Assembly: GCA_013407085.1 (NCBI GenBank)
Contig: JACCGJ010016194.1
Location: forward strand, 1-64,000
DNA: 64,000 nt
DNA from: Atriophallophorus winterbourni
Lineage: Eukaryota; Platyhelminthes; Trematoda; Plagiorchiida; Microphallidae
Direction: 5' to 3'
Shown here: one piece after another, positions 16,457 to 57,800 of the stretch
Layout: each line of letters begins with the position of its first letter
How positions within the stretch are numbered: the stretch's first letter is position 1
Notes under the pieces: generated by a model
What the model was told of the DNA's origin: nothing
Databases searched by the model: none
The model's input: the letters and a program-made list of their open reading frames with translations, nothing else
Position numbers and translations under genes: made by a program

Positions 16457-19400
16457 GTTAGTTCATTATTGTTTTCTATATATAAAGAGCGAAACCGTTG
16501 GAACAAACTTCCTCACCCCTTACCTCTTCTGGCGTTCGATTGCCGGACTGCACAGTATTCCTTACCTGCAACAGTAAGTTTATTTCTTAAATCATAATAT
16601 TAACAATATCACGACGGAACCTGGTCTTTTCAACTTGTAAGTATCGTGATAGATGTCACCCGGCTAAATTGATTTGTCACCTATAATAATCTACACGAGG
16701 AAACGAACTTTTGTTTCACTGCTACCTATCTTTACGCATGAACAACCTGACAATATCTCAGCCTATGTCATGTCTCTGAATATACAACAATTTACCTTGA
16801 TCCAAGCTTGTGGTTTTATGCACATAATATATCGAGCGAGACCATTAACACTTTACATACGTAACAAAATCATATGTAAACCTGTGCCCCGTGATACAAT
16901 GATGTCGTCTAACGTAATGAGTTAAAAGAAGTTTAGCCTGTTAACCTAGTTGGAAGTCGGAGCAAACTAGGTTATCCCATATAACCCCGCATTTTACACA
17001 TTGATTGTCATGGAGAACTACTAGCCAGATGCGACTGACTTCAGGTGAATTACTGAGGAGACCTTAGGGTGGCAAGGGCTTGGGGAGATGAATGACAACG
17101 AGGAAAGTTTAGCCGACCTATGCACCGCAAGCAATCTGGTCTTTGAAGGAAGTGTTTTTCACCACAGAAGAATACACAATGCGACTTTGGTGTTACCAGA
17201 TCTGTTAACAGAAAACCAAATAGACCACGTGTATATCGGGAAGAAGTTTCGACGCACTCTTCACGATGTACTCGGCAACCGAGGAGCTGGCGTTGCTTCC
17301 GACCATCATTTACTTGTCGCCAAACTGAAATTGAAGAAAAACTGGATCATGTAGTCCAGCCAACAACAGCGCTACAAAACCCCTATTTTGAAAGACAGTA
17401 GGAAGGAAGCAGAGTTCAAGTTCACCCTCTTCAAACAGTTCCAGGTCTTGTTCTGAATAAGTTCTAACATGATCTTACTGTCTCCACCTGGTGACAACAC
17501 ACAACCAGAAGCCGTTTGTGAAGTGTAAGTGAATGGGACATGAGCACCACAATATTTATGTTCTAACAGTTTTTAGCTAGCTCTGTTTGTAAATTGTAAT
17601 GTTCTACTACTGGATTCCATGTGTTTGTTCTGGTATATACTGACTTTAAGATTGCTCCGTTATCTGGTTCTTGAGTTTCTCTCTGGACGTGAATCACCTT
17701 GTTCCGCTCTGGGCTCCTTGTTATTCTTTACAACTATGCGGATACGTTGCTTGACTTCAAGCACTGTTTGCTATTGCTCTCTTTTAACGCACGCATATCC
17801 CGAAACAGGGGATTGTTCGTTTTACATGTACTTTGTGAATTCGATTTCATTTAATATTCTCCAACAATCGCGTCCACCCTCAAGCGCTTTTGAGCCCACG
17901 ACACCGAGCAGAATCTTAACCAAACGTTCATCTTGCATATTACTTGTTTCTATTTGTGAATGCATAGCGTCGTTGCATTTTTGATAAGTATTGACAGTTG
18001 TACGAATTCAGTAATGAATCTTTTTGCAAGATGCTTAATTTGGTCGTGAATCAATGGTTTGCTTCTTACACATAAACTCATTGATCTTGTTACTATTGCT
18101 AGGTGGTTGCTCCTGAACGCTTTCCTACTCATCGTTTCGGGCATACAGTTGTTCCATGGCGTGGTCGGGGTTGGTTGTTTGGAGGCCGGGATGTATCCTC
18201 TCTGTGCTCCGAGCAGCTTTACATGTTCTGTCCCGGAAGCGACACAGAATCCGGTCCGAGTTGGTCACTAGTCCACGGGATCACAGGCACTCCCCCGGCA
18301 CCGCGAGATGGACACTCGGCTGTGGTGCATGAGTCAGCCATGTTTATTTTCGGAGGATACGTTTCGTCGGTATGCGGTGTGAACAAACGTTTCCGTTCAT
18401 TCTTGATGTGCTTGATGCTGCTGGTTCTCTAACTAAATAGAAATGATGCACTCTCTCCGTTGATGTCGGATCATTGCCAGTGTATTGAGCCATACACTTT
18501 TTCTATTGCAACCCACCCATTAAAGCGAACCCGTCCAACATTGGCTGATCAGAAGTGAGTCTTTTCAAGCCACTCCGCACGGATGTGCAATCTTGCAGCA
18601 CTTCTGTGCTGTACAGCTAACACCGTGCTAAATGGATTTGCCGTCGGTAGTGAGCTGCATGCGAATACACGCTTGAGTCTCACTTCCATTGCTATTTTCC
18701 TTTCCCATATCTGTCTAGGTTGGGGCAATCTGACAGTATCTTAGCCCACATGCAGTCTCTGACTGTGCGTCACTTTGCCTGGATCTGGCTTGTGACTTCA
18801 TACATCATACATAAATACTCCTCCCAGTTAATGGCTGACTGTCCGTCAATATTTTTCACTTTATACCACAGGACATGTCCCAACCAGCGATGACGACGTC
18901 AGTTAATCGTTGAAAGCTTGTTCCCTTGCTTCTTAGGACGCGGCGCATGACCTTGCAAATATTGTGTTGGTACCCGTTTCGTTAACCATTACCGTTCCCG
19001 TTTACCAATTTTAACTTTTCTTGTCACTTCATACATCATACATAAATACTCCTCCCAGTTAATGGCTGACTGTCCGTCAATATTTTTCACTTTATACCAC
19101 AGGACATGTCCCAACCAGCGATGACGACGTCAGTTAATCGTTGAAAGCTTGTTCCCTTGCTTCTTAGGACGCGGCGCATGACCTTGCAAATATTGTGTTG
19201 GTACCCGTTTCGTTAACCATTACCGTTCCCGTTTACCAATTTTAACATTTTCATTCCAGTCACCGCTTTCATTTTCTACACGAAACATCGTGTACGAACA
19301 TGTTCCTCCACAAAATTCATGGCATTTTTACTTGTGCTATCTTGTGACAGCACTCATTATGCGTAAACTGGTTTCCCGTTTGCTGAATACCCGGGAAAGT

Positions 19401-22400
19401 TAGTAGAGTGTTAAGTATACGGAACTTGAATTTGAAACGGTAATTAGCAGTGATATATCGCAGTGATTTGTGACAAAATTATGGGTTTATCCGTCTCATT
19501 TCAGTGGATCAAACCGTTGCTTATCACCTTGTTTTACTGACTGACTGCCTATTAGGGGCTCCAAACCCTCAAGTAATAAAATGCGTTTCGTTCCGGTCAA
19601 CGTTTTATAGCTCAGCTTTCGAAAACGCTCTTCATTCTCGTTCATTTAATCATTTTAAGACATTGCTATCTACTTTGACTTGACGTCTTTTCTATAATCT
19701 TATGTCTGTTTGCTAGGTTGATTCCTTCGACAATAAGGTCTACCGCTTGGACTTTCACACTTGGTCCTGGACTCATCTGCAAGTATTTCACCCTGGTCGA
19801 TCTATGGGATCTGCCGCAGAAGAAGAAGAATCCTTTCAGGTCGAGTGTCCTCTAGCACGGGATTTCGCTTGTTTGTTCAGTCATCAAGGGCGTTTGTTCC
19901 TATTCGGTGGCCGATCTCAAAAGAACAGTCCTGTCTCTGATGTATATGACTCTGCTTTATGGGAGTTAGTTCCTTCCGAAACTTCAGACGACGTGAGCTG
20001 TAAATGTTGCTCTCCAGACTGCTCAGTTTTGACCAAGACTCATTTTCGGATGGCCTGGGAGGAACAGACGGGCAATTGGGACAGGTAGTTCTTTTTAGCT
20101 AATCTTATTTTGGTTTGCAGTTTCGCGTTGTTAGCTCTGTTAAACAAGTCAGCTTAATCGACTGATAATTTGCATCAGACGCATGTTATTGTTATGGTAT
20201 ATTTTATGAGGGATGTACTGAGCTCAGACGAACTAGGTCTCAACTAATCAGCCGACTGCGTGAGCCAAACTGTTTTCCATTTTCAGGCGTGGGCGACCTG
20301 ACAATGACCCAACCCACGCCTCGCCGGGACAATTACAACAAAATCTAACTTCATCGCGCAGGGTAAATCTGGTCGCCCTACATGCTGCATACATTTTGGG
20401 GGGGGTAAACGAAAGCTAGCTACTGCTGGTCTACAATCCCTTTCTGACCATCTCACTTCCATTTTAATCCATATTCTCCGGCATCCATTTGTGTTCGCTA
20501 CCAGTTTCCAGTGTTTGCTCTTATAAGTTTTAATTACAATCTACTCACCAGCGTCATCACATCGGTATTAGTTACCGTGCAACAATGACACAGTAAAATT
20601 CTAAATCGGTGGGAAATGAGGAACGTGGAAAATTTGCGGGATCTGTAGAATAAAAAAAGCACATGTACACCGAACTGAGGTGTTCACATCGCAACGGAAA
20701 CAAGTATTCAATCAACTTTTGGGAAAATTTAGAGCGATGTTACCTCAAAAGCTTCTTTACGGTTCTCACTATTGTAACCATTTTTCTTCGTCACTCCTCT
20801 TGATAGGACCGTTCTGAACCACATTTCAGCGGGTGAGCAGCCCCTGCAAAATGTGTTCCATCGGAACCCAACTAGGAAAATGTGCTGTCCCAAGGAAGAC
20901 CAGTTTAGGTGTGTGTGCGTGTGTGTGAAATCACCAACCTGATTCAGGCAGCACATTCATAGACTGTATGTGTGGTAACATACTGTCGATTACCTAGGAC
21001 TAATAGTTATATGAAAACGAAAATGGTAATGAGACTGCAGCGTGTTTCCACGTGAAGCTCATTGCCTTAACAAATCAATTGACCACGTTGCTACCCTCGC
21101 ATTGCACACCCGTGCCAACTGATTTAATCATATTCTTCCCTCTGGTTGTTAGCTTTGAGCCGTGGTTCACAAGCCCCACTCGCCCTCCTTCGCTTTGGCG
21201 TCTCCTGTCCTCGCCACCTCCGGACCAAACGAAACATTGTTGTTGTTGTTGTACCATATCACCCGATTTCTCATCCAATTCCCGTTGGGCCTCCGGCCTG
21301 GTCAGATGGTTACGATTGCATCCGGGACATGGGGTTCAAATTCCCAATAAAGCGATCACAAAACTATACCGTCGTTCGACCATTTCCAGCCCGTTTGGAA
21401 GACGAAGCGCGTCAAACTGTACGTCCCTTGCTTAACATTAAATCAGTTATTCAGTAAACATGCTGTTACAGTATGAAAGTACAGAGATCATCCCTAGCGT
21501 TGTAATGTCATGAGCTTATTTCTTTCGATCGTCTTAACTGGCTCTGCCTTGTATCGGCCTTAATTGATGATTTATAGTCTATTATCCTAACGTATCCACG
21601 AATCGATCTGTTTTCCCAACCGCTGTTTATTTCCTTGCTGGATGCTTGACGTTCAATTTGTCCACACGTCATCTTCAGGGGCCTACAACGGTAATTTGTA
21701 CGTCGCATTTGGCGTACTTTCAGAAGCGTCCAACTACAGTTCCCAATTGCACTTTGACGACATCTGGCGGTTCAATTTGGCCTCCTGCGCTTGGTCTCGT
21801 TGCCAACGCACCGAACCGTGGCCTGACGGACGTCGGCGGGCATCCGCGACGCTTTATTGGCCACGCCTCATTGGTTGTTCGCAGCGCCCGCCTGTATTGC
21901 TGCTGTTTGGTGGCACTCAACCAGAACCAATGCTGGAAGCGAAAATCAATGTTGCCCCGCCGCTGTCCCCGCACGAGATTCGCACCGAGTTGCTCGCGTT
22001 GGATCAGTATTCGTTCGGTTTGTGCTGTGATTTATGCTTCTTTTTCATTCTAGCGTTATCGTTTTCATATTCAAATGTCAGTGCTTCTCACGCCGCTCAA
22101 GTTGACCGACCATGTTGATGCCCAGGTGTCATAGCGTAGGAAAAACAGTACACGTTTCGCAGCTGTGATGCACATGAGAGTGTTCAGTCTATAATATGGC
22201 TTAACGTAATTAAATTGATCTCTCTCAAAATGGATGTGCAATCGTGTAGTACTTGTGTGTTGTGTGGTTAGCACCGGTAGTGTGCTGCATATGAAAACAC
22301 GCTGGCTCGGCACTGCCATTTCTACTGTAACTATCATTTCTATCTTGACCTGGACAACCTGACAGTATCCTAGCCTACGTGCGGCATTTCACCTGGATCA

Positions 22401-25400
22401 GACTCTCGAAACGTAGCTTGGCGTACCGATGCTTTCCAAGGCGGAACCCCTTGTTTCGACTGGTGAACTTCCTTCACAAAATGATGTATTAAATTCCGGT
22501 TTTCATGGATTCAGATTCAATTGCTTACCATTTGTAATTAGGCAGTCATGTAGCATAGCATCATTTCGCATGACTGTTCTTATCTTTTAGTGTAAGCAAT
22601 ATGAGACAAAAGAACGTGTTCCCCTACTTTATTTCTCCTAAGTTTGGTTAACAGGATCTATTAAATCGATACCGACCAAATTATTGAATGAATTGCTGAC
22701 ACACCTAATGTATTCATTTCGCTGGAACTCTTACAATTCTCGCTCTTATGTTGTATCATCATGATTGTTCCTGATGAATGATTTTTCGCTTTCAGAACGC
22801 TGGTGTTCACCTACTATCGCCCCCGGTCTAACTCCCCCGAGTAATCTAGGTCCCGCGTCTCCGGTAGTCGTTTGCTTTGTCAACCCCAGCAACCGCTGCA
22901 CACAACTATCTCTCGTTCTTGTTCTCCCCCCTACACCCCAACCAATTCTCACCCCTTCCTGTCATCTGTCTATATTCTCCGCTTTCTACGTCATGTCCGG
23001 GGCAGCCATATCGTCATGGTTTTGTTCACCACGTCAGCCTAAATGTTCCAAGGAGGACGAGGTACTCGATCAGCTGTTGAATAGCACCCCGCAGACCGGC
23101 ATTGATGCCGTGCGACTGTATCACATTCTGCGGACAGCCTGGTTGTCAGACAGGTACATACCAGACAGTCGATCGCAACATGCCCCACCTGGACACTACT
23201 GCGTTCGCTTGGTTTTGACGCAAGCCAATGATACAATTGTAGCGTAAGTTTTGCACATTATCGTAAAAATTCATCTATAATCGTCAATGGTAGAGTTTGC
23301 CATATCTAGCAGTACAATTTTCAGTACTTCCGAAATCGGCCCACTAAATCGGCTACTACACTGAACATCGCTAGCAAATCGTATAGTTAAGATTTTATTG
23401 ATTACAGGTCTGCATGCCTTCGATATTCACTGGAGTTCGTCCGCACAATCGGATGCGTACTACAACTGTACGTCATAGTATCCGTGGTAACGGCATAGAT
23501 ACAGGGGAAAAAAATGGTAACGTGCATAGACTTCGGTGATTAGGCAGCGCATTGCGAATGGGAAATCGTCGTTTTGTTTGCCACTCCTAACTCGGAATAG
23601 CGTCGTTGTATCGCTAGTCGTACTTTGACTTGGTTCAAGAGATCAGAATTCGCAATGGCTTCTTACCCTTTGCGATATTGCTTAAGATCGTGTTCACTGG
23701 CGGTCTTGTTGTAATCATCTTGGAATGTTTGATTAATCTTGTATGTTCTCATGTGAAGTGGCGATGAAAGCTTGCTATGATGCGTGACTGTAAAAACCGA
23801 AAACCAGCCGCTCTACCCGTTCGCAACACTTGCTTGTTTGATTGGATGTGCAGACACCTCATCCCGGTATATCTGTATATAATCATTTAAAGGTTTAGTA
23901 ACATTTTCGGTTCTACCCACCAGGATTCAAACTTTCTATGGTTGTATGGCTGTCAAACACTCGTTACTAGCTACCGGTATCTGTTTTTATTGTATTTTCA
24001 TTTCTCATATCTGTCCAGGCCTAAGCAACCAGACACTATCTTAACACACGTGCTATTAATGACTGTGTGACACTCCCTGGATAAAGCTTGTGATTTCATA
24101 CATACATGCAGACATACATACATGCATACATACATCATCAGCATCATCATCATGAAGCACAAGTCTGGAGCCAGACAAAGTGCCAAGCAATATGAAGCAA
24201 GTAAGCAAGCGCGTGGAAAAGGGAAAGCAGGCAAGCGGAATACGCAAAAGCAAATGCACAAAAAGCAACTTGTTTTTGTAGTTTCACTGCATGCGATTTT
24301 TTGGTTTTTTGTTTTGTTTTTGTTTTTTTGTGTTTTTATGTAAAATAATACCGGATAAAAAATTATGACACACAATAAAATACACTGGCGCCACTGACTT
24401 CGGTTTGTAGCCATATCGCGTAAGGTTTCCAGCCAACTATTAGGTGGAGCTTTTGGACCCCACCCAGGCAAACGAATACGCCAAACTGAGCCTAGCGCTA
24501 CGGTGAGTTTCTTCATCCCAACGCGCCACGTCATGGACTGGCCACCCGATCTTTTCTTCCAGCTTCTGTCAGGCTCTGCGAATAAGGCGCGGTACGGTAA
24601 ACCGTGAGAAGGCATTCTTAATACATGTCCCAACCATCGCAAGCGAGCAAGCATCAGCATTTCTCTCAGTCCGCGGCCACCTGGTCCTAACACCCGCTTG
24701 CAGACATCTATATTTGTAACACGATGCTGCCACCGAATGCGAGCAATTCTACGCAGGCAACGGGTATCAAAAACAGAAAGCCGACGGACATCTTCCGCTC
24801 GGATAGACCAGGTTTCGCAGCCATAAAGGAGTGTAGCACGCACCACTGCGTTGTACACTCGGCCTTTAGTATGGAGTGAAACATCGCGTCGACGCCACAG
24901 GTGGCGAAGGTTAGCAAACGCTGCATCCGCTTTGCGAACACGATGTGAGATCTCGTCCTCGACACAACCTCCAGCGGAGATACAACTGCCAAGGTAAACA
25001 AAGCTGTCGACCAATTCAAGATTGACATTGCACACAGTTAGGTTTGGAAGAGAGCCGCTCCAATCCTGGGTAAGTGTTTTACACTTGTTAGGCGCAAAGC
25101 ACATGCCATACCTTGAAGCTTCAAGTGCCAGGCGGTCCAGGGCTTGTTACATTATATGAGGGTCGTCTCCCAGAAGTGCGATGTCATCGGCAGACTCTAG
25201 ATCGGTCGCTCGCTCACCCGGCAGAAGTTCAACACCTGTGCCCACCAGTCCAGCTAAAGCTTTTCTCAGGACATCGTCGATCGCGAAGCTAAAAAGGAAC
25301 GGCGAGATAGGGCAGCCCTGCCGCACCCCGCTGGAGATATTGAACGAGGACGACAATTGTCCGTACGCTCGAACCCTGCCCGAAGTTTGGCAATATAATG

Positions 25401-33945: not shown

Positions 33946-34299
33946 CACAGCGTATGTAAATGGGAATTAACTATTGTCGGCCGTACTTGCTTTTATTCAC
34001 ACAATGTGACCACATTTCGATGATTAACAAACATAGTAATCTTGATCGCAAAGATCGGCAGTTGGAATCGATCGTTTCTAATCCAAGAACATCACATTTG
34101 TTAAAAAGAGATTCTGAATTCTCCCATCGATACGAGTTTGTTGAGATTGATATACACTCAAAGGTCGACATGCTGTCTAGCACCATACATATGACAGCAT
34201 CCGTCAGAGTTCTGTCTGAGTGGTTATCGACAGCTAAATGTTTTACTCGGTTTATTGTAACGTATCTTATGTGCGGACATACTACGTGCATGGTGTTCA

Positions 34300-34362
34300 T
34301 CGTGTGTTCGCAGAGCTTGCGTAGTTGTTCTTGGACGTTTCATCATCAGGCTAGATGACATC
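34300..34362 (-). repeat. Penelope-type terminal motif, copy 1
   Basis: On the minus strand GTCATCTAGCCTGATGATG, then AAACGTCC and GCGAACACACG. The same block lies next to the Penelope-like fragment at 39.8 kb. Confidence 0.5.
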
Positions 34363-34554
34363 ATCAGCAAAACTTCTTTCGAAGCGTCTTGCAGTGCATT
34401 TAGCACCGATACTGTTGAGTGCACTTTCTCACCATCAGTGGAATGCATTCACAATGGTTAATCTACTATTTTCGAAATTCTCATTAGATTCCTTTTAGGA
34501 TGTATGCAGTCAAACATTTTAATCCAAAGGGTCCGTGTGTATATGTGTATGAAT

Positions 34555-37020: not shown

Positions 37021-37084
37021 AATGTTGTGTGTTCGCTGAGCTCGCATTGTAGCAGTAGGACGTTTCGTCAAGCTAAATGACATC
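37021..37084 (-). repeat. Penelope-type terminal motif, copy 2
   Basis: On the minus strand GTCATTTAGCTTGACG, AAACGTCCTACTGCTACAA and GAGCTCAGCGAACACACAAC. It matches the block at 39783-39850. Confidence 0.5.
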
Positions 37085-37161
37085 GTCAGCTGAGCTTCTT
37101 GTGAAGTGTTCGTAATCGTCGTGTTTTCTTATTTTATACGCTGACCGTTCTGTTTCTTTCC

Positions 37162-39089: not shown

Positions 39090-39768
39090 GATCTGGGCCT
39101 TGAACTTCAGTCTCTTGAGGGCAGTGTTAATCTTGTTTTCTAGTCGTTTTGTTTTATCTTCACTGTTCTGTCGGTAGGTGTTCGTGTCCCGCAGCAGTTC
39201 TTCAGTTTTCGTGATGTAATTAGCTTTATCCATGACTACCGTCATTCGCCCTTTGTCTGCGGTTTAATGACTGTTCTATTCGCTTTTATGTTGTTTGATG
39301 GCTTTCCTTTCCTCATAGCTAAACATCGGGTGTTCTGTTTCTCTGTCATGCGGGAATGATTTTTAGCCAAACATTTTCTCTCATGTCTTGATTCATATCT
39401 TGAGATTTGATTATATCTTCCAGACCCGCTAAGAATTCACTTGTGTCGGCATCCCGATTATTAAATTTTAGTCCTTTCGCAAGCACCCGCTTTTCGGTCG
39501 TTGTCAATTGATTTGTTGAGAAATTTCTCACCCATGTTTCTACGTAATTATCCCATTCATTAGGCGTGATTCTTTGCGATTTCAGGTCAAGTGTTCTTCG
39601 CTTCTTCATATTTGCTTGGCCCGTTTTTATTTTAATTGCTTTCTCCAGGTCATCTGCTAGTTGCTGCCCAATGTGGACGTCGCACCTAGCTCGTTCTTCA
39701 TTTTTTATAGCTTTGTATTTCCTCAGTCTTTCGTAGGCATGTGTGATCATCACGATATCCATTCGCAA
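39090..39768 (-). mobile_element. Penelope-like element, N-terminal fragment
   Basis: On the minus strand, 39346-39768 reads WVRNFSTNQLTTTEKRVLAK, the hallmark N-terminal motif of Penelope-like proteins (NLS..LT..E..VL.KGL.F). The next frame reads EERKAIKQHK, then TADKGRMTVVMDKANYITK, LLRDTNTYRQ, KTKRLENKINTALKRLK, the stretch just before the RT fingers. Stops separate the two. The RT core and any GIY-YIG domain are missing: the element ends at the junction with the CR1-like fragment. Confidence 0.75.
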
Positions 39769-39782
39769 TTTTGTTTCTCCTT

Positions 39783-39850
39783 GTCATCTAGGTTGATGAC
39801 GAAACGTCCTACTGCTACAATGCCAGCTCAGCGAACACAACATTCAATCC
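39783..39850 (+). repeat. Penelope-type terminal motif, copy 3
   Basis: GTCATCTAGGTTGATGACG, AAACGTCCTACTGCTACAA, GCTCAGCGAACACAACATTC. It lies immediately upstream of the Penelope-like frame, on the opposite strand from it. Confidence 0.5.
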
Positions 39851-40106: not shown

Positions 40107-40200
40107 ACAAGCTGTTACTGAACCTAATCTTACTGTCTCCACCTGTGGAGTGTAATTTCGGGGATGTGAGCAACACATAACTCTGTTACTGTATACTTTC
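40107..40200 (+). repeat. repeat X copy lacking the ribozyme core
   Basis: CTAATCTTACTGTCTCCACC is joined directly to TGTGGAGTGTAATTTCGGGG and GTGAGCAACACAT. Compared with the 50.3-kb copy, about 28 bases (the hammerhead interior) are missing between CCACCTG and TGGAG. Confidence 0.7.
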
Positions 40201-40809: not shown

Positions 40810-42625
<1,816 letters not shown>

Positions 42626-50007: not shown

Positions 50008-50231
50008 GTGATGTGCAATCGTGCGGTGCGGCTAACACCGTGCTAAATTGATTGTCCAGAGGTAGTGAGCTGCATGCTGAAACAGACTGGAGTCTCGCTA
50101 CCATTTCGTTCTTATTTCTTCCTCATATCTGTCTAGGCCTGGGCATCCTGACAGTATCTTAGCCCACGTGCAGTCTCTGACTGTGCGGCACTTTGCCTAG
50201 ATCAGGCTTATGCTTTCCTACCTACCTACCT
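50008..50231 (+). repeat. SINE with TACC tail
   Basis: Nearly complete, with a short internal deletion in the first 40 bases. The hairpin arms GGTAGTGAG/CTCGCTACC keep pairing through a T-G wobble. The tail is CCTACCTACCTACC. Confidence 0.85.
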
Positions 50232-50235
50232 CCTT

Positions 50236-50337
50236 AAGGTGATGTGTTGCTTACATCCCCCGAAATTACACTCCACTACCGGTTTCTGGCTGTTTGCCAT
50301 CATCAGGTGGAGACAGTAGGATTAGCCTTAGAATTTA
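50236..50337 (-). repeat. repeat X copy with intact hammerhead
   Basis: On the minus strand GGCTAATCCTACTGTCTCC, the ribozyme, then GTGTAATTTCGGGGGATG and AAGCAACACATCACC. Directly abuts the tail of the SINE. Related copies are at 17.45, 40.11 and 56.19 kb. Confidence 0.75.
50271..50312 (-). ncRNA. minimal hammerhead ribozyme
   Basis: Minus-strand parts in order: helix I strand CUCCAC; core CUGAUGA; helix II UGGC, loop AAACA, GCCA; core GAA; A plus CC pairing with GG plus U (helix III, ACC/GGU with no loop); cleavage triplet GUA; helix I strand GUGGAG. All 6, 4 and 3 base pairs are Watson-Crick and every conserved core base is present. A loopless 3-bp helix III cannot close in a monomer. The palindrome ACCGGU would let two copies pair, as known for hammerheads of Penelope-like elements and satellite RNAs. 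The role is inferred: processing of tandem or circular repeat transcripts. Confidence 0.8.
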
Positions 50338-50559
50338 ACGAAAATTTTGTTGAAAACCCGTGGAGAAATTAATTTAATGAATGGCCGATTTGATGAGATC
50401 GCAAAAGTGCTGTTCTTTAGGCTACCACATACTCAGAATCAAAATGCTCTTCCAACTTGGTTCAGCTCAAAATTGTCTGTTAAAATTGATAATTTAGGAA
50501 ATGGCTAAACAAAGTTAGTCTGTGAAGCCGCAGTTGCATAGGGTTCGTACAACGAACCA

Positions 50560-50790
50560 CGATGTTCAAACACAGAATCCCACAGTGTTTCCTGCTCAAG
50601 CACTAGAAGCGCTTATAGATGGCTAAAGGTGTTGCCGACAGGTTTATGCTGTACTTGTGTTTAATTTGGAATGCACTCCCTGAAACTAATGCTACCGCGT
50701 CAACATTTAGACACAATATTCGCAAAAACGATTTGATTGTACGTATGTATGGTGATTATTCAAATCGACTATACGTGACATAACATGATG
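50560..50790 (+). mobile_element. LINE 3' fragment
   Basis: Reads LIWNALPETNATASTFRHNI, the C-terminal motif that ends CR1-like ORF2 proteins in this window (NTWNSLPEELL, NFWNKLPACIV). Confidence 0.55.
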
Positions 50791-54800: not shown

Positions 54801-57800
54801 TACTAAATGCTTTACTATATGACATCGAAACCTGGACCATCCACGCAAGACATGAACGGAAGCTGAATGCTTTCCATCTACGAAGCATCCGTCGTATCTT
54901 GAACATATCGTGGATGGACAGAGTGACTAATGCTAGTGCTTTCAAAAGCTGGTCTACAGAGCATGTTCACCCTATTGCGACAGCGCCGCCTGCGGTGGCT
55001 TGGTCATGTCTACAGAATGGAAAATTGTGATATTCCGAAAGATCTACTCTATGGTGAGTTGCAAATAGGAAGTCGACGATTGGGAAGACCGCACTTGCGG
55101 TACAAAGACGTTCGCAGTAGAGATATGAAAGCTTTTTGTATGACCCCACGATTTGGGAATATCTTTCTCTTGACCGCTCACATTGGAGGTATTGTGTAAA
55201 GCGTCGTCTGCAAGCTGAGGAGGAGCAGATACAGCTCGTGGCTGCTGAACGCAGATCGCGCCGCCGGCGTGCAACTGATGCAATACAACCGAGTTCTGCA
55301 TATCGGTGCGAGAGCTGTGGGAGAGATTGTTCCTCCCGAGTCGGACTGTTTAGTCAACCAAAAAGATGTGCAGTATGAAAAAATCATGCGATTGTGATGT
55401 AAATCCACGGTGGACATCGACCGAAGGAGGCCAAAAACAACCCAATAAACGTTGGTACGGAGGATGGTAAACTTCACTAGTAAAATATCGAATGCCTAAA
55501 GAGAACGCTTCAATGTGAGATCGAACCAGGCTGAACAACAAAGTCATGGTGATCAAGTGATCTCTCGGAACGTAGGCAGTGTTCAAAGATACTGGTAACG
55601 TGAATGCGTTTTCGTCCGTTATCATTCCACTGTCTCACGCCTCACTGAAACCAACTTTGCCGGCTCCAACTGATTAGGGCGCGTTGCCCGAAAAACGGTA
55701 ATAAGGTGTAAAAGCCAGTGATGTGAGCACTAAAACAACCTTAGAGAGTAGTTTGACATATAGCATCTGGGAAATAAGGATTGCCACGTGATATCTATTC
55801 CATGACAGGTTCGAAGAAATGTGAGAATATGACTACGTGAGAAGCACACATTTAACACGCAGCATGAATAGCTGTCTACATGGAAGGCAGCGATGTCATC
55901 AAATGTCCGTTTTCTAGTTTCACAAGGAACGAGCATTTGTCGTACCGTGAAAACCTCACTGGTAAATTAAAATTATTTATAGAAAACGAACGCCCGAAAC
56001 GAGATGACAGCTTTGGTTTTTTGTGTCGAGTGGGTTTGGAATGTATATTCTATAAAACAAGGATTACAAAGCGGCCAAGTGATGACCAACAGAAATGATA
56101 GTCTAAGATTAAGGTACACCGAAAGCTCAGCTAGACAGCTTTGACATCCATACAGATTTCAACCCCAATTCACAATAAGAAGCGGTGCTCAAACCCCAAT
56201 CCCTTACACACCCTAATCGGTTTTCTGCTGTTTGTCATCATCAGGTGCATACAGTGAGCCGTCATCAGTGCAGTGCAGTGAGCCTTGATACAGTAGGGGT
56301 GTATTCCTAGCTAGTGAGAAATGATAATGTAACACCAAGTGGTGATGTGGATTTAGGTACGCAAAACGCATAAATGAGAAAATCGATAAAATGCTGAAAC
56401 GAGGAGAGAAATAGTGAACAAATTACAAGCTTAAGAGGCGCCTATTGGTCAGAGAAACCACATGGTCTCCGAATCGAAATTCGAACGTGGAATACGAAGG
56501 AAATATAGTTGGGAATCCAGCGCGCGTGGGGGGAGGTTGAAACCAAAACAACGAGGGAACAACAAAAACTTACCAACGATACTGCTCGGCTTGCGTCAAC
56601 GTATGTTCGAAGATAAGCAGTTCAAACTATGAGAGAAGAGAGGTTAGTAAGCAGTGAAAGAAGGAATGGTAGTAAGCAAAAAACAGGTAGGTTAATGGGT
56701 TTGAATAACGGAATCGGCTACTGCCAGTACGTGACGAGTGAAAAAGGAATGGTCGTTAGATGTGTGATGGCAAGGTATGCAGATACGTTCGGGGATCGAG
56801 CATCGTTAAACAAACAAGATTGGTCGTATCATTTTGCAAGTAAGCAAAATGTTTTGATTTTGTTTTCAATTCAAAAACTCTTACAGGGTTAAGAAAAAAT
56901 GAATCCCACTTCCTAGACTTGGTAAATATACTCAATGAAAAGCCGTTCGCAGAAGAAGAGAAGATAATTAAAAACAACATACCAGCGGACCCATCCAAAC
57001 CCGTATTGAATGAAATTAGAAGACGGAGTACCTTACTCGAGGTGAACTTAGTTGTTCGATGGTTTAAACGCTTTCAGTGTAAGCATGTTAAAGTTAGAAT
57101 GCACAATGAAAATGATCTAAAATAATGATTCTGAACCAGAGGGATCAAAGCAAATCGGGAGGCATAGAACAACACCAAAAGATTATTTCACCATCGCGCA
57201 TTCTAGTTTTTTGAAAATAAATGAAGCCGTCGTCGTTTAAAATGGGCTACGAGGGAAAATCCTTGCACAAATGAACGTGCATGGAGAATTAGAACTTACT
57301 ATTGGTGGGCAGAAGTAAGGTCACACGGAAAATTTATTTTCAGTAAATCCGTCACTGAGAGCCATGAGAGAATTCATTGTTGTTTAGTAACGGATGAGGC
57401 GACTTTAGACTGGCACACATTCATTCAAGATGATAAAGTGCAAATGAGAAAATTCTGTGGTCAGTTGAAACGGTTAACATCGCCAAAAATAACAAAGATG
57501 TTTAATTAAATGGTCAGACAACCAATAGGGTGGGTATAGCACTCAACGAACACAATCATGCCGACTGTAATAATGTATGTATGCATGCATGTAATTATGT
57601 ATGTCCGTCTGTATGTATGTGTGTGTATATATGTATGCATGTATGTATGTATGTAATTATCTATGTATTTATGTCAGTCTGCATGTATGTATGTCCGTCT
57701 GTATGTATGTGTATGTACGTACGCATTCATGTATGTATGTATTTATTTATGTATGTAATAATGTATGTATGTATGTATGTACGCATGTAATTATGTATGT

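What the first reader, a model, noticed from the sequence alone, without database searches (positions are those of the whole stretch)
50271..50312. Intact minimal hammerhead ribozyme in a dispersed repeat
The minus strand holds every conserved hammerhead core base (CUGAUGA, GAA, GUA cleavage triplet) and three perfect helices: 6 bp (CUCCAC/GUGGAG), 4 bp (UGGC/GCCA, loop AAACA) and 3 bp (ACC/GGU) with no loop. The loopless palindromic helix III is what is expected of hammerheads that cut as dimers, as known in Penelope-like elements and in small circular-RNA-producing repeats (retrozymes). The host repeat, here called X, is not a LINE or the SINE. It may be a retrozyme or the terminal repeat of a Penelope-like element.
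Basis: partly seen in the sequence, partly recalled or inferred. Interest (0 to 1): 0.88.

Follow-up and report, generated by a model that had tools for sequence, protein, structure and literature searches.

The report
Self-cutting RNA in jumping repeats
The motif is a real hammerhead self-cutting RNA, predicted to work only in pairs; it belongs to a 241-letter mobile repeat with thousands of copies in this genome, whose insertion scars point to copying by reverse transcription that starts at two fixed places.

Summary
In detail: 50271-50312 (-) is a complete type I hammerhead, not expected by chance (0 strict hits in 610 Mb simulated). Its host repeat X is a ~241-bp unit, found singly, in head-to-tail arrays and in inverted pairs: a metazoan-type non-LTR retrozyme, not the terminal repeat of the Penelope-like element found in this genome. 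Exact 30-nt hammerhead domains: 2,061 of family X, 3,531 of a sister family Y (~233-bp period, GUC triplet). Y shows compensatory changes in helix II. Folding predicts a misfolded monomer and a double hammerhead for two copies. What adds most are insertion footprints: exact target duplications (8 of 18 in a contig-order sample, null 0.06), 3' ends concentrated at two unit positions, and inverted pairs that are all head-to-head (19:0 and 5:0), often with one duplication around the whole pair. This fits target-primed reverse transcription from both target strands, as reported in vitro for a Penelope-like enzyme. Cleavage, circular RNA and the enzyme's identity are untested. The window copy is a minority variant, interrupted by a 180-nt block.

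The parts
50271..50312 (-). Type I hammerhead motif (helices I 6 bp, II 4 bp, III 3 bp loopless; GUA; expected cut after 50277)
50266..50321 (-). Hammerhead with the outer helix I segment (UAC/GUA here) beyond an internal loop
50236..50325 (-). 3' piece of the X copy, unit positions 152-241; ends at the common 3' end site A
50506..50634 (-). 5' piece of the X copy, unit positions 233-119 (82% identity)
50326..50505 (-). 180-nt block that interrupts the X copy; origin unknown
50241..50257 (-). Hairpin before the 3' end (GATGTG-AGCAA-CACATC in the majority sequence; one change here)
   Evidence: by eye
17466..17551 (+). Diverged X copy (77% identity), core changed
40124..40185 (+). X copy that lacks the catalytic core between helix I strands
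56204..56255 (-). Diverged X-related copy with CUGAUGA and a changed helix region

Best explanation
X is a non-autonomous non-LTR retrozyme. Transcripts of head-to-tail units carry a hammerhead whose loopless helix III forms only between two copies (ACCGGU with ACCGGU), so cutting is expected in multimers. The RNA (circle or multimer) is then copied by a borrowed reverse transcriptase. Seen in the sequence: copies are flanked by target duplications; 3' ends lie mainly at two internal unit positions, A (about 240, ~40 nt past the cut and just behind a hairpin) and B (about 112-123); inverted pairs are head-to-head, usually joined with 1-8 nt of overlap, often with one duplication around the whole pair. 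I read this as target-primed reverse transcription started at A or B, sometimes from both target strands, the two cDNAs joining at their 5' sides. Inferred, not shown: ribozyme activity, circular RNA, and that the enzyme is the genome's Penelope-like element.
For: Tandem 241-bp units; 2,061 exact catalytic domains, control 0. Pairing across 50 distinct hammerheads 85.6% against at most 44.7% slid; 20 both-side cells against 5.4 in shuffles. Double-hammerhead cofold -36.5 against 2 x -16.4 kcal/mol. Duplications >=8 nt: 5 of 38 (null 0.07), 8 of 19 head-to-head pairs (null 0.27), 8 of 18 in the contig-order sample (null 0.06). 3' ends: 42 of 80 at 234-242/1-6 and 15 of 80 at 112-121; 14 of 25 and 4 of 25 (112-123) in the contig-order sample. 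Head-to-head to tail-to-tail 19:0, 5:0. A Penelope-like protein cleaves and extends both strands and starts RT internally in an AC-rich stem loop (PMC11167929, main text). A Penelope-like family with long open frames is abundant here.
Against: No RNA or cleavage data. Rfam misses it. Most copies have a C.A mismatch in helix II and only 20 of 98 pass the strict test. 5' ends do not pile up at the cut site. The unit folded as a circle is no more stable than shuffles (X 28 of 100, Y 74 of 100 shuffles as stable; z -0.65 for the linear unit), unlike the stable folds published for retrozymes. One of five covariation measures does not exceed shuffles. 8 of 24 adjacent unit pairs share no private change. 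PAc's hammerhead was not needed for insertion in vitro (PMC11167929).
Confidence: 0.75

Rival explanations
1. X is the pseudo-LTR, or a fragment of it, of a Penelope-like element.
For: Penelope-like elements carry type I hammerheads and stand in tandem (PMC11167929, PMC7761336). Penelope-like coding pieces lie in six groups of the X loci L001-L060; not compared with chance.
Against: The two Penelope-like junctions read have another hammerhead-like motif and no X; X units repeat every 241 bp with no ORF between them.
Confidence: 0.08
2. The hammerhead is a relic: X is an ordinary TPRT-moved SINE-like repeat whose ribozyme no longer works.
For: Helix II mismatch in most copies; insertion footprints do not need the ribozyme; cut-site 5' ends not enriched.
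Against: 453 exact consensus hammerheads; core diverges less (0.051) than flanks (0.097) in 98 copies, though these were chosen by similarity; compensatory changes between X and Y.
Confidence: 0.15
3. X is a satellite or a DNA transposon with inverted repeats (MITE-like).
For: Tandem arrays and inverted pairs exist.
Against: Only head-to-head pairs, joined at varied unit positions, in a minority of insertions (5 of 18); many single insertions have duplications and 3' ends at fixed sites.
Confidence: 0.03

Closest known systems
Metazoan non-LTR retrozymes (PMC7229834; outline, sections 13, 15, 17 and passages seen)
   Same: Type I hammerhead in short tandem repeats (150-450 bp), GC below 50%, dimers to long arrays, no LTR; amphibian ones have a very short helix III with a palindromic tetraloop and act best as dimers. 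X read that way is one A-U pair with the palindrome CCGG.
   Different: Published work suggests Penelope-like elements as movers but the passages seen give no 3' end sites or inverted double copies; here both are mapped. RNA circles were shown there, not here. The circle fold of X is not unusually stable.
Penelope-like elements, PAc of Anolis (PMC11167929; main text read)
   Same: Hammerhead near the RT start site; internal RT start near a stem loop; both target strands cleaved and extended in vitro; AT-rich targets; tandem units.
   Different: X has no long ORF and a 241-bp unit; the Penelope-like family of this genome has a different hammerhead-like motif.
Schistosome and newt hammerhead repeats (PMC4918200, PMC8490949, PMC7229834: passages or sections)
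   Same: Short repeats of animals with a type I hammerhead; newt type acts as a dimer.
   Different: Schistosome repeats hold a tRNA sequence (PMC4918200 passage); I did not look for one in X. Sequences were not compared.
Twin-primed LINE-1 insertions (recalled, no call)
   Same: Head-to-head inverted copies inside one target duplication.
   Different: X ends at internal sites without a poly-A tail; the second 3' end also tends to lie at a fixed site.

Membership tests
Type I hammerhead ribozyme | Core CUGANGA, GAA, NUH triplet and three helices | tested here: met
   chance control
Type I hammerhead ribozyme | Conserved core with compensatory helix changes among relatives | tested here: met
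   the main change is one family-level event (X against Y)
Type I hammerhead ribozyme | Self-cleavage | not testable with these tools
   Only folding: monomer core paired, two strands give a double hammerhead
Type I hammerhead ribozyme | Match to the curated Rfam model | tested here: not met
   The loopless helix III may be the cause (inference); a model miss is not a defining feature of the fold
Metazoan non-LTR retrozyme | Tandem units of 150-450 bp with a type I hammerhead | tested here: met
   241-bp units
Metazoan non-LTR retrozyme | Target duplications longer than 4 bp | tested here: met
Metazoan non-LTR retrozyme | Linear and circular unit-length RNA | not testable with these tools
   no RNA data
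Metazoan non-LTR retrozyme | Stable, highly self-paired unit RNA | tested here: not met
   55-61% paired in four X units, no more stable than mononucleotide shuffles for the one X and one Y unit tested. Reported as typical, not as a definition, so membership is kept
Penelope-like element pseudo-LTR | Sits at the ORF junctions of a Penelope-like element | tested here: not met
   two junctions read, no X

The most novel reading that the evidence does not exclude
Animal retrozymes are passengers of Penelope-like elements: the enzyme starts reverse transcription at two fixed internal sites of a multi-unit hammerhead RNA, one from each target strand, so that head-to-head double copies inside one target duplication are a normal product. 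The scars of X and Y would then point to the machinery that moves animal retrozymes.
Probability: 0.45. Interest if true: 0.75.

Novelty: new member of a known kind. Interest (0 to 1): 0.57.

Why it matters
A 2020 review says that animal non-LTR retrozymes show no conserved motif that would tell which autonomous element moves them, while naming Penelope-like elements as likely candidates (PMC7761336 passages). X and Y offer testable information: two preferred 3' end sites, target duplications and head-to-head double copies, in a genome with an abundant Penelope-like family with long open frames. The predicted dimer-only hammerhead ties cutting to multimeric RNA, which is what tandem units produce.

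Tried and rejected
Chance motif: rejected. Pseudo-LTR of the Penelope-like family found: rejected. Fifty-base partial matches beside units looked like fixed array ends; I take them for the tool's margin and remapped ends from the loci. 5' ends at the ribozyme cut: clusters at unit 199-222 and 132-142 come from loci picked by a query; in the contig-order sample 6 of 12 free starts lie at 132-147 (counted by hand), near an AACAGTGG/CCACTGTT stem, not at the cut. So I do not claim that cut ends are templates. The frame opened by the AUG of CUGAUGA (58 codons in L006) was considered as a relic of a Penelope ORF; by eye it does not resemble the Penelope N-terminus; not tested. Circle or multimer as template: adjacent units share 32 private changes against a mean of 9.9 for random loci (largest 27), yet 8 of 24 pairs share none: undecided. 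Pfam does not recognise the putative GIY-YIG piece; its naming is by eye. The RT piece hits RVT_1 below the curated cut-off and no solved structure. One large protein search gave one hit. Co-location of X with Penelope-like pieces was not compared with chance. Species not identified.

Full report
What is there. The minus strand of 50271-50312 holds a full type I hammerhead. A grammar with helix I >=6, II >=4 and III >=3 Watson-Crick pairs gave no hit in 610 Mb of simulated sequence, a relaxed one 23 hits in the equivalent of 9,531 windows. Rfam models miss it.

The repeat. The window's genome (G000, 537 Mb, 15,840 contigs) is held. 201 bp around the motif showed a 90-bp repeat (40 of 2,386 candidates scored) that is part of a ~241-bp unit. 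Units occur singly, in head-to-tail arrays (4.4 units in L063; overlapping matches spanning 2.8 kb, C15186 284062-286881) and in inverted pairs. The exact 30-nt domain occurs 1,027 + 1,034 times, the reversed pattern never. The majority form of the 42-nt hammerhead occurs 453 times, the window's form 15 times.

Sister family. Diverged matches led to family Y: CUGAUGA GUGC AAACA GCAC GAA ACC GGU C; 1,688 + 1,843 exact domains with A or G at one place, control none, in arrays of ~233-bp spacing (C129; 230 and 233 in L086). X and Y share roughly 110 nt that end with the hammerhead and little elsewhere.

Constraint. 50 distinct hammerheads were aligned (the window's and 49 others of the 77 distinct hits; 43 X-type, 7 Y-type or related). 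85.6% of cells pair, against at most 44.7% with the partner slid; 20 cells change on both sides against 5.4 in shuffles (0 of 500 as high); the number of pairs with such a change, 5 against 4.2, is not unusual. The basal helix II pair is G-C in six Y-type rows and the next pair is U-A in six; both together in five rows (read). Cells count sequences, and this is largely one family-level event. In 94 distinct X copies, chosen by similarity, site divergence is 0.051 in the core, 0.073 in stems, 0.097 in flanks.

Dimers. The isolated window hammerhead folds with C3-U4-G5 paired (probability 0.94-0.96). Two strands cofold as a double hammerhead: helix III is the 6-bp ACCGGU/ACCGGU, helix I lies between strands, the core is open; -36.5 against 2 x -16.4 kcal/mol. 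The X form does the same (-36.1 against 2 x -14.5), the Y form too (-33.1 against 2 x -14.5), with its monomer core less firmly paired. Alone, the two Y hammerheads fold no better than shuffles. This is prediction, not activity.

How it inserts. Ends were mapped on a 242-nt reference unit (L033 436-677; cut after 200). After dropping 16 overlapping or allelic loci and pieces under 78% identity, 42 of 80 free 3' ends lie at 234-242/1-6 and 15 at 112-121; 5 of 38 insertions with both ends free have an exact duplication of at least 8 nt, null mean 0.07, largest 2. In 47 kept loci (17 dropped) 19 neighbouring opposite pairs are head-to-head and none tail-to-tail; 15 of 19 junctions overlap by 1-8 nt; 8 of 19 pairs have an exact duplication (10-14 nt) around the whole, null mean 0.27, largest 3. 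One of the 19 (L037) joins X to a Y-like piece; one opposite X-Y neighbour pair in the other sense (L053) falls under the identity limit. These loci were picked by similarity to queries. So the first 20 places of the contig-order list were fetched (they must contain the exact domain). Two near-duplicates dropped, 8 of 18 have duplications (9-15 nt, a few of which may belong to the element end), null mean 0.06, largest 1; 14 of 25 3' ends fall at 234-242/1-6 and 4 at 112-123; 5 pairs head-to-head, 0 tail-to-tail. Three further loci, fetched because they are pairs, show GAACCCGATACT and GTTAATGGA (Y) and GAAGTTATT (X) on both outer sides (by eye). Flanks are AT-rich, 0.67-0.68, against 0.60 for the loci.

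Reading. Preferred 3' ends, variable 5' ends and duplications mean target-primed reverse transcription; head-to-head pairs whose outer ends are mostly RT-start sites mean that both target strands primed ('twin priming', recalled). For PAc the paper reports cleavage and extension of both strands, unlike R2 and LINE-1, and an internal start in an AC-rich stem loop (PMC11167929). Site A of X lies behind GATGTG-AGCAA-CACATC. The genome has a Penelope-like family: 150 of 4,020 candidates scored, many open frames of 600-924 aa, ~2,531-bp tandem spacing, a hammerhead-like motif at the ORF start with no obvious helix I by eye. In the 150 rows four contigs have neighbouring copies within 6 kb in opposite sense, all minus-then-plus (by hand). 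The link to X is analogy of mechanism, not proof.

Literature. PMC7229834: outline, passages, sections 13, 15, 17. PMC11167929: passages and whole main-text section. PMC7761336, PMC4918200, PMC8490949: passages. Others: listings. The 2014 paper on Penelope hammerheads is not held. Target duplications of retrozyme-like repeats and Penelope-like elements as candidate movers are already in print (PMC4918200, PMC7229834, PMC7761336). No held paper has both 'retrozyme' and 'twin priming'; one has 'hammerhead', 'retrozyme' and 'target-primed reverse transcription' (PMC10886601, listing only).

Limits and changes. No RNA evidence; species unknown (a metazoan is likely from a tubulin gene, kelch pieces and the element types; not proven). 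On checking, I lowered novelty from 'new variant' to 'new member' and interest from 0.60 to 0.57, because the palindromic helix III with dimer action is described for amphibian retrozymes (PMC7229834, section 15), and I withdrew a statement that Penelope-like pieces beside X are at chance level, which I had not tested.

Noticed in passing
window 34286-34395 (-), 37028-37109 (-), 39782-39841 (+); L018 2584-2664 (+): Short Penelope-like fragments that cover the hammerhead-like motif and the next ~40-80 nt of AC-rich sequence.
   Followed up: partly
window 39337-39753 (-): Penelope-like N-terminal coding piece, 44% identical to L064.
   Followed up: partly
window 50021-50230 and many other places in the window: Abundant SINE-like repeat beside the X copy, with a CTAC-rich end; many copies by self-comparison.
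   Followed up: no
window 18789-19252: Near-perfect tandem duplication, period 231, 2.0 copies, 99% matches; not compared with Y.
   Followed up: no
L016 2508-2830 (-), L058 2224-2279 (-), L006 1852-1907 (-), L011 1629-1684 (+): Further hammerhead-like variants, so more than two subfamilies exist; the L006 one is the weak Rfam hit.
   Followed up: partly
Y copies, e.g. L053, L087, L088: Sequence ATGCAAAT, recalled as the octamer of snRNA promoters, recurs ~30-50 nt past the Y hammerhead.
   Followed up: no
window 40810-42558 (-) and 19717-23247 (+): Alpha-tubulin-like gene pieces (Pfam Tubulin for 41893-42558) and kelch-repeat pieces.
   Followed up: no
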